Source: Anaerofustis stercorihominis DSM 17244
GTDB lineage: Bacteria; Bacillota; Clostridia; Eubacteriales; Anaerofustaceae
Length of the DNA: 64,000 bases
Assembly: GCF_000154825.1 (NCBI RefSeq)
Contig: NZ_DS560019.1
Span: 1,096,501-1,160,500, forward strand
Reading direction: 5' to 3'
Shown: positions 46,134 through 49,580 of the stretch, one piece after another
Position numbering within the stretch: the stretch's first letter is position 1
Layout: the number at the start of each line of letters is the position of its first letter
Notes under the pieces: model-generated
Told to the model about the DNA's origin: nothing
What the model saw: only the letters and a program-made list of their open reading frames with translations
Databases searched by the model: none
Translations under genes and position numbers: made by a program

Positions 46134-46145
46134 ACATATCTCCTT

Positions 46146-46160
46146 ATATCCACTGGATAT
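46146..46160. promoter_or_regulatory. operator-like palindrome 1 of the GntR/AraM operon
   Basis: ATATCCA-C-TGGATAT, a perfect 7-1-7 palindrome directly upstream of the regulator's ribosome-binding site. Confidence 0.75.
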
Positions 46161-46218
46161 ATTATTTAATATTACAATATGTGTTTTTTAATAAATTGTC
46201 AATAGTATTTATTAATAT

Positions 46219-46236
46219 ATATCTCCAGTGGATATA
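46219..46236. promoter_or_regulatory. operator-like palindrome 2 of the GntR/AraM operon
   Basis: ATATCTCCAGTGGATATA shares CCAGTGGATATAA, in the opposite orientation, with site 1. The sites are about 74 bases apart, seven helical turns, which would allow looping. Confidence 0.65.
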
Positions 46237-46510
46237 AAATATTCATTAGATTAAAGAAATTATGAACTTAAATGATATGATTTATAAACAGGTTACATAA
46301 ATTTTTATAATTTAAAGGTAAAAATATTTTGTATTGAAAGGGTATTGGAATTTTAATAAATTAAAGTACCATTAAAATATCTCTGATAATCTTAAGCTCA
46401 CTTTTTTTGATAATTATTAAATCCTTTTATATAGAGAGTTTAATAATTTGGTTTTAGAATATTATTATTTTTGATATTACTGTAATAGGCTATTTAAAGG
46501 GATTTGTAAA

Positions 46511-46543
46511 GTTGCACTCCGCAAGGGGTGCGTAGATTAAAAG
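46511..46543 (+). CRISPR. outlying degenerate type I-C-like CRISPR repeat
   Basis: A 33-base unit beginning GTTGCACTCCGCAAGGGG and ending GTGCGTAGATTAAAAG. Its arms CACTCC/GGGGTG keep the I-C style stem. It lies 245 bases before the regularly spaced repeats, with AT-rich DNA and a CTCCG...CGGAG hairpin in between. Confidence 0.6.
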
Positions 46544-46755
46544 ATAATGCTATTCTTTTTTAAGATAAAAAAGAACGAAAAAATCTCCGCTCAAGCCTCG
46601 GAGGCTGAAGCAGTAGCTAAAAGGTATGCAAAACCTACATTTGCAAATCATTTTTGCGGCATTTTATTTAGCAGTGAGTAGTTACATATTTAATTGATAT
46701 TGTTTACATTTTATTTTAATGGCAAAGTGAAATTTTAACTTTATAATGAATAAAC

Positions 46756-47061
46756 ATAAAATCTTATTAATATATTGTGGATTGAAATAAGGTATACATA
46801 ATAACAGAGAATTATTTAAAAGTGTTGTACCTTGCATAGTATGCATGGATTGAAATTCAACGATGATGAATAGCCCGGAACAAAAGGTAGTTGCAACTCA
46901 TACGAGGTATGTGAATTAAAACTGTATACCTAAAGGATTAGGAACGATAGACAGCGAGCGGTCGCACCCCGCATAGGGGGGCATGGATTTAAAAGGTTAT
47001 GATAATTTGCTCGTTTATAGATTTAGAGTTATGCTCCTAAGAATTGTATGTAGTTACAAAT
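46756..47061 (+). CRISPR. decayed type I-C-like CRISPR array, no cas genes in the window
   Basis: Five repeat-like units begin at 46756, 46824, 46890, 46961 and 47028, so the steps are 68, 66, 71 and 67 bases. The unit at 46824 starts GTTGTACC and ends CATGGATTGAAAT. The one at 46890 starts GTTGCAACTC and ends GTGAATTAAAAC. The one at 46961 starts GTCGCACCCCGCATAGGGG and ends GGATTTAAAA. The outer two keep only parts: TGGATTGAAAT at 46778-46788, and GTTATGCTCC with a final CAAAT at 47028-47061. Type I-C repeats share GTCGCAC...GTGGATTGAAAT. The 33-38 base intervals look like spacers. Each repeat carries different substitutions, so the array is probably dead. Confidence 0.72.
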
Positions 47062-47310
47062 GAAAATCATATGTTATTTTTATAAAGAACTTATATTTGT
47101 ATTTTTATATAAAACTTTTTATAATGAATTGAATATGTATATTTAAACCTAAAAATTTGAACTGAGTTCAAATTTTTATTCGTTAATAAAGCATTTTAAT
47201 AAAGTCACACTAAAGTTTTATGATTTACTTTTACATATGGTTTTATGGGTAAGGTAAATAAATTATATAATATCAAAGTGAAACATTCCAAATAATGATT
47301 ATATATAATA

Positions 47311-48547: not shown

Positions 48548-49580
48548 ATGAAAAGAACAAAAAAATTATTGATGGTTGGACTTAGTTTAGTATGTGCAGT
48601 AGGATTATTTGCCGGCTGCGGAAACAGCGATAGCGGTAATTCGGCGGATAAAACATACGAACTCGGTATTTTACAGTTTGCAAATCACGGTTCACTTGAT
48701 AATTGCAGAGAAGGATTTTTACAAGGTTTAAAAGAAGAAGGTATCGAAGAAGGCAAGAATTTGAATGTGACTTACAAGAACTCCGGTTCGGACGCTGCAA
48801 CTGATAACCAAATAGCTTCAAGCTTTGCTTCAAAAGATATGGATATGATTTGTGCGATAGCTACTCCTAGTGCACAAAGTGCATATAATGCTGCTAAGGA
48901 TAAGAACATTCCAGTTATATATACGGCAGTAACATCTCCGAAACTTGCGGGTTTTGTTGATGACAGCGATAAAAATGTCGGAGAAATCACGGGAACATCT
49001 GATTTGGTACTTGCCGATGACCAATTAAAACTAATTACCGATATGATGCCAAAAGTAAAAAATGTAGGTATACTTTACAGTACCAGTGAAGTTAATTCAA
49101 AAGCGGGTATCGAAGCTTACGAAAAAGCAGCAAGCAAGTATGGCGTAAAAATAATAACTCAGGGAACAAGCAGTGCGGCTGATATCCCTATGGCTACAGA
49201 CAGCTTAGTTAAAAAAAGTTGATTGTATCACAAATTTGACTGACAATACTGTAGTAAGTAATCTTCCTACGATTTTAGATAAGGCAAACAAAGCTAAGAA
49301 ACCTGTTTTCGGTTCAGAAATAGAACAAGTTAAGATAGGATGTATCGGATGTGTAGGTATCGATTTTGTAAAACTCGGTAACCAGACAGGTAAAATGGCG
49401 GCTAAAGTTTTAAAAGGCGAAGCTAAGGCAAAAGATATGCCTTTCGAAACTTTTGATTCCGGCGAAATCGTTATAAATACCAAAGTAGCAAGTGACCTTG
49501 GTATTGAAATCAGCAACGGTGTGAAAGAACAGGCAAGTCAGACTTTTGATAAAATAGAACAGTCAGGCGAAAATAAATAA
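48548..49580 (+). pseudogene. ABC transporter substrate-binding lipoprotein (TrpX-like), frameshifted
   Basis: The first frame (48548-49222) has a lipoprotein signal (LFAGC lipobox near residue 21-25) and most of a PF04392-type binding protein (YELGILQFANHGSLDNCREG is characteristic). It stops after DSLVKKS. The continuation (LTDNTVVSNLPTILDKANKA to the TAA at 49578-49580) is in another frame. The break is at a run of seven A (49211-49217). With six A it would read LVKKVDCITNLTDNTV and give about 343 residues, the usual family length. Under Trp T-box control and followed by permease and ATPase, it would bind tryptophan or a related compound. It may be intact in reality. Confidence 0.88.

What the first reader, a model, noticed from the sequence alone, without database searches (positions are those of the whole stretch)
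46511..47061. A dead type I-C-like CRISPR array without cas genes
Five units of about 33 bases follow each other at 68, 66, 71 and 67 base steps, with one outlier at 46511. They keep the I-C style start (GTCGCACCCC, GTTGCACTCC) and end (GTGGATTGAAAT or variants), yet each has different substitutions. This is what an unused array looks like after losing cas1/cas2 and effector genes. The gene-poor kilobase around it may be the scar of the lost locus. The 33-38 base spacers may still match old phages.
Basis: partly seen in the sequence, partly recalled or inferred. Interest (0 to 1): 0.75.

Follow-up and report, generated by a model that had tools for sequence, protein, structure and literature searches.

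The report
Fossil type I-C CRISPR satellite array
A gut bacterium of the genus Anaerofustis carries the decayed remains of an antiviral CRISPR memory array whose intact counterpart still sits at the same spot in a sister species: a well-documented but ordinary fossil of a lost immune system.

Summary
The repeats are real and the array looks dead, but it is not the scar of a cas locus. With a profile built only from other arrays, the four best positions of the 64 kb window, both strands, are 46511, 46890, 46824 and 46961. Unit 46757 is weak alone but has homologous copies; 47028 is not above chance. The 'outlier' 46511 is the leader-side repeat: a leader lies at 46388-46510. The window's genome gave no match to Cas1, Cas3, Cas8c or Cas7 yet keeps three leaders, followed by four, one and zero repeats. 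The bare one adjoins the tRNA-Thr that flanks cas in the congener, a more likely, though unproven, site of loss. Between 46511 and 46757 lie a dispersed repeat and a segment met only beside arrays. Four window spacers gave no convincing target.

The parts
46388..46510 (+). CRISPR leader (leader A)
   Evidence: about 78% identical to the leaders of intact arrays in G002 (C62, C11) and in its own genome (C4:86230-86342); 48 bases of the same leader follow cas2 in G002:C18 before that contig ends.
46511..46542 (+). leader-side repeat, 5 changes in 32 bases, all 7 stem pairs kept
   Evidence: (E 1.7e-6); corresponds to the last repeat of the syntenic array of G002.
46556..46606 (+). core of a dispersed hairpin repeat
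   Evidence: 13 further places in G000 match only this part of the query.
46640..46756 (+). segment met only beside CRISPR arrays (five places in two genomes, this one included)
46757..46788 (+). degenerate repeat, only its 3' part readable
   Evidence: Weak alone; homologous to first repeats at G000:C4:87k and G002:C63 (82% and 65%, z 7.7 and 5.2).
46789..46823 (+). spacer S1
   Evidence: Between units; one viral contig matches a 20-base core, but 10 of 35 bases differ over the whole spacer.
46824..46856 (+). degenerate repeat, 9 changes in 33, 5 of 7 stem pairs
46857..46889 (+). spacer S2
   Evidence: No match in viral contigs (20-base core) or elsewhere in three genomes of the genus.
46890..46922 (+). 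degenerate repeat, 9 changes in 33, 5 of 7 stem pairs
46923..46960 (+). spacer S3 (38 bases)
   Evidence: No match in viral contigs (20-base core) or elsewhere in three genomes of the genus.
46961..46994 (+). degenerate 34-base repeat, 4 changes, 6 of 7 stem pairs; closest to a 34-base repeat of the array at G000:C4
   Evidence: (E 1.3e-5).
46995..47027 (+). presumed last spacer or flank S4
   Evidence: No match of a 20-base core in viral contigs.
47028..47061 (+). claimed fifth unit of the run: not supported
   Evidence: 225 of 691 random places score as well.

Best explanation
The locus is the fossil of a satellite type I-C CRISPR array. An ancestor had a I-C system with several arrays sharing one leader; one sat between the GntR/AraM-like genes and the 85-aa/143-aa genes. 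In the window's lineage the interference and adaptation genes were lost, so the array can no longer grow or be cut into guides. It shrank to a leader plus one repeat, followed by a dispersed repeat insertion and an older block of three or four drifting repeats. It has no immune function now (inferred from the missing genes, not measured).
For: Repeats above chance. Leader about 78% identical to leaders of intact arrays. Syntenic intact array with 7 repeats in G002, where the window's single leader-side repeat aligns both with the first repeat and with the last one plus trailer, as expected if the array collapsed to one repeat here or grew there. Complete I-C operon cas3-cas5-cas8c-cas7-cas4-cas1-cas2 in G002:C18 followed by the same leader. 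No match to Cas1 (Pfam, 0 of 1 own genome, 37 of 61 genomes searched have it; controls ring in 9 of 14), Cas3, Cas8c or Cas7 in G000. Of 27 substitutions in 132 repeat positions against the closest intact repeat, 23 go from G/C to A/T and 2 the other way. Substitutions differ from unit to unit.
Against: G000 is in 5 contigs (99.2% complete), so a cas locus in a gap is not strictly excluded, and Cas2, Cas4 and Cas5 were not searched. The leader-side repeat keeps all 7 stem pairs and others 5-6 of 7, so processing by an incoming I-C system is conceivable. Intergenic DNA here (80-86% identical to G002) is not more diverged than fourfold sites of four of the neighbouring genes (57-79%), so there is no sign of faster decay. 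The direction of change assumes that intact repeats stand for the ancestor.
Confidence: 0.92

Rival explanations
1. Scar of a lost cas locus: cas genes once stood in this gene-poor kilobase next to the array.
For: The genome gave no match to four Cas proteins and a dead array lies here.
Against: The congener has an array but no cas genes at this junction; its cas operon lies beside tRNA-Thr and an HD-domain-like gene on another contig. In G000 the same tRNA-Thr (194 bp at 91%) has a bare leader next to it.
Confidence: 0.04
2. The orphan arrays still serve a role without their own cas genes, for example as guides for a I-C system that comes in by transfer, or as anti-cas spacers.
For: Stem of the leader-side repeat intact; another array in the genome has four repeats of which three are near intact, and its first spacer matches 7 viral contigs at 28-31 of 34 bases. 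Orphan arrays with anti-cas spacers are in print (passage seen in PMC6737040).
Against: No spacer of the window or of the C4 arrays matches the congener's cas contig beyond 9-18 base chance matches. Three or four of the window's repeats are strongly decayed.
Confidence: 0.03
3. Chance similarity or a dispersed repeat family that mimics CRISPR units.
For: A dispersed repeat does lie at 46556-46606; unit 47028 is chance-like.
Against: Ranks 1-4 of the window, leader, regular spacing and syntenic intact array.
Confidence: 0.01

Closest known systems
Type I-C CRISPR arrays (Cas5/Cas8c/Cas7 systems)
   Same: Repeat of 33 bases with a 7-bp stem and GTGGATTGAAA(C) end, spacers of 33-38 bases, leader shared with arrays and with the cas2 flank of a complete I-C operon in a congener.
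   Different: Repeats decayed, one repeat at the leader, no cas genes found in the genome.
Orphan or remnant CRISPR arrays
   Same: Array away from cas genes, probably a remnant; [quoted passage not shown]
   Different: Here an intact syntenic counterpart shows what the array looked like, and an inserted dispersed repeat splits the remains.

Membership tests
CRISPR array | Near-identical direct repeats with unique spacers of even length | tested here: inconclusive
   Three to four spaced units plus one leader-side unit, spacing 66-71, but repeats differ by 4-9 bases each from the closest intact repeat: met as a relic only.
CRISPR array | Leader upstream of the first repeat | tested here: met
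   46388-46510.
Type I-C system | Repeat of I-C kind, same as arrays served by a I-C operon | tested here: met
   Same leader after cas2 of the I-C operon in G002:C18 and before the intact arrays used as model. The array served by C18 itself is cut off at the contig end.
Type I-C system | cas3, cas5, cas8c, cas7, cas4, cas1, cas2 in the genome | tested here: not met
   No match to Cas1, Cas3, Cas8c, Cas7 in G000; Cas2, Cas4, Cas5 not searched.
Type I-C system | crRNA processing by Cas5 | not testable with these tools
   Needs RNA data; stems keep 5-7 of 7 pairs in four units.
CRISPR array | Spacers match foreign DNA | tested here: inconclusive
   Window spacers: none convincing. The sister array at G000:C4: first spacer matches 7 viral contigs; third spacer none; second not searched.

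The most novel reading that the evidence does not exclude
The dispersed repeat plus the segment at 46640-46756 is an array-associated module of this genus, for example a fossil second leader: it is conserved up to and including the first decayed repeat at four places, where the first spacers are unlike, and it was met only beside arrays. That would mean that tandem arrays with two different leaders once shared a locus, or that a mobile repeat travels with arrays.
Probability: 0.2. Interest if true: 0.45.

Novelty: new member of a known kind. Interest (0 to 1): 0.27.

Why it matters
It is a clean case of a dismantled CRISPR-Cas system: two congeners, one with the I-C operon and intact arrays, one without the four Cas proteins searched and with three leaders followed by four, one and zero repeats. 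It shows how arrays may outlive their cas genes and how a leader alone can mark a lost array. It does not change what is known about CRISPR.

Tried and rejected
Lost cas locus at this junction: rejected, as the congener has none there. Site of the cas loss in G000: the HD-domain-like gene that flanks the operon in G002 lies at G000:C4:134 kb, followed by an L-PSP gene as in G001; no repeat better than E 0.69 and no leader match there. The tRNA-Thr that flanks the operon in G002 lies beside the bare leader at G000:C4:174.6 kb, but there the leader precedes the tRNA, whereas in G002 it follows cas, so a simple deletion does not explain both; the neighbouring DUF3048 gene was not found in G002. 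The site therefore stays open.

Spacers: the whole region 46511-47060 against phages gave 520 records at E up to 10, of which only 15 were listed; best listed E 1e-3, in the array-associated segment and not in a spacer; several Staphylococcus phages at E 7 overlap unit 46961 and S4. Plasmids: 26 records, best listed E 0.04. S2 to S3 alone: 2 records, E 3. 20-base cores of S1-S4 in viral contigs: 1, 0, 0, 0 contigs; the S1 contig differs at 10 of 35 bases. Anti-cas spacers: only chance-size matches. The 7 viral contigs matching the first spacer of the C4 array differ at its leader-side end and lack the TTC motif in front (motif recalled); in one of them the match overlaps a 221-aa frame without a Pfam match.

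The stem counts printed used a wrong offset (intact repeats came out as 3 of 7); one search replaced them. The '70 down' comparison includes the second repeat; one search compares first spacers only. One search found nothing because of a wrong pattern length and was redone. One 28-base leader match (G002:C62:20470) was left out of the leader count as too short.

Full report
What is there. The window lies at G000:C5:1096501-1160500 of a 2.28 Mb genome in 5 contigs, 99.2% complete. The tool places G002 in the same genus; two G002 contigs have the lengths (124300 and 340643) of two contigs of Anaerofustis stercorihominis DSM 28733 that hold the same leader, so the genus is Anaerofustis by inference. 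The species of G000 is not named by any search. Only three genomes of the genus are held.

The repeats. A gapless profile from repeats of other arrays puts 46511, 46890, 46824 and 46961 at ranks 1-4 of the whole window, both strands; 46961 (12.3) is close to the next place (12.0), because it has one extra base. A covariance model gives it E 1.3e-5 and 46511 E 1.7e-6, but 46890 only 0.05 and 46824 0.53. At the expected positions 46824, 46890 and 46961 beat all 691 random places and all 700 Markov pieces; 46757 is beaten by 59 and 9, 47028 by 225 and 63. So the run holds three sure units, one (46757) supported by homology, and one (47028) that is not supported; 46511 is sure.

The leader. The stretch before 46511 is about 78% identical to the leaders of three intact arrays. 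A search with the congener's leader found in G000 the window, C4:86230-86342 and C4:174609-174725, and in G002 C62, C11, and 48 bases after cas2 on C18 up to the contig end (one further 28-base match left out). G001 had none; it has a Cas9 and another Cas1 instead. In G000 the three leaders are followed by four repeats (C4:86 kb; E 1.1e-14, 3.3e-14, 9.4e-14 and 3.9e-4), by one repeat (window), and by none (C4:174.6 kb: no match better than E 6.7 on that stretch).

The syntenic array. In G002:C62 the same genes flank the place: GntR/UTRA regulator and AraM-like enzyme on one side (Pfam names from the window's proteins), the 85/86-aa and 143-aa genes on the other (protein identity 90-96%). Between them lie the leader and seven repeats. 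The window matches this up to 46542 (80%) and again from 46511 to 46698 (86%) and from 47200 (84%): the window's single repeat aligns with the first repeat on one side and with the last repeat and trailer on the other. Bases 46699-47199 of the window have no counterpart in G002. As similar segments follow arrays elsewhere in both genomes, a deletion in G002 is the simpler reading (inference).

The cas genes. G002:C18 has frames matching Cas3c, Cas5c, Cas8c, Cas7 (best model Cas7b, then Cas7c), Cas4c, Cas1c and Cas2c, a complete I-C set. G000 gave no match to Cas1 or to the G002 proteins Cas3, Cas8c and Cas7. Cas2, Cas4 and Cas5 were not searched in G000. In G002 the operon follows a tRNA-Thr and a decayed repeat. 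The same tRNA-Thr region (194 bp, 91%) stands beside the bare leader in G000. The gene order differs, so the place of the loss remains open.

Between 46511 and 46757. Bases 46556-46606 match 13 further places in G000 and several in G002 that match only this part (the tool scored 40 of 146-160 candidates per genome, so counts are lower bounds). Matches that go on past 46640 were seen at five places, the window included (G000:C4:87 kb, G002:C62, C11 and C63); each lies beside CRISPR repeats. Over 110 bases before the first decayed repeat four of these are 63-82% identical (z 6.9-14.6), while their first spacers are not alike (z -1.3 to 1.0). This could be a fossil second leader. Against it: in the window and at G002:C11 the repeat nearest the segment is the most decayed, the reverse of what a leader would give, and recombination between arrays at their repeats would give the same pattern.

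Decay. Four units differ from the closest intact repeat at 27 of 132 positions; 23 changes go from G/C to A/T and 2 the other way. Stem pairs kept: 7, 5, 5 and 6 of 7. The DNA around is not more diverged than fourfold sites of neighbouring genes. This fits drift but does not show speed of decay.

Spacers. None of the window's four spacers has a convincing match in phages, plasmids or viral contigs, as told under Tried and rejected; S2 and S3 occur nowhere else in the three genomes at up to 3 mismatches. The first spacer of the sister array at C4:86 kb matches 7 viral contigs at 28-31 of 34 bases, which fits an antiviral past of these arrays.

Literature. Searches for orphan, degenerate or cas-less arrays and for Anaerofustis with CRISPR showed, in the listings, no paper on this locus; I read only passages of PMC6737040 and PMC8026048, which treat remnant arrays as known. 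Verdict: a well-supported fossil of a known kind.

Noticed in passing
window 48548-49580: A substrate-binding protein gene (Pfam ABC_sub_bind) behind a T-box is split into two frames (224 and 114 aa) where the congener has one frame of 348 aa: a frameshift or a sequencing error.
   Followed up: partly
window 46556-46606 and 13 further places in G000: Dispersed hairpin repeat of about 50 bases; outside arrays it is often followed or preceded by GGGGC..GCCCC-like stems.
   Followed up: partly
L043 2000-2150 (G000:C4:174.6 kb): A CRISPR leader without any repeat, beside tRNA-Thr(TGT) and a DUF3048 gene.
   Followed up: partly
L048 1076-1110 (G002:C18): A decayed repeat (E 0.014) also lies between tRNA-Thr and cas3 in the congener.
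   Followed up: no
L050 3628-8289 (G001:C23): The third genome of the genus has a Cas9 of 1101 aa with a Cas1 and no trace of the I-C leader.
   Followed up: no
window 46144-46171 and 46210-46237: Inverted repeats with TATATCCACTGGATATA in front of the GntR-family gene, probably its operators (function inferred).
   Followed up: no
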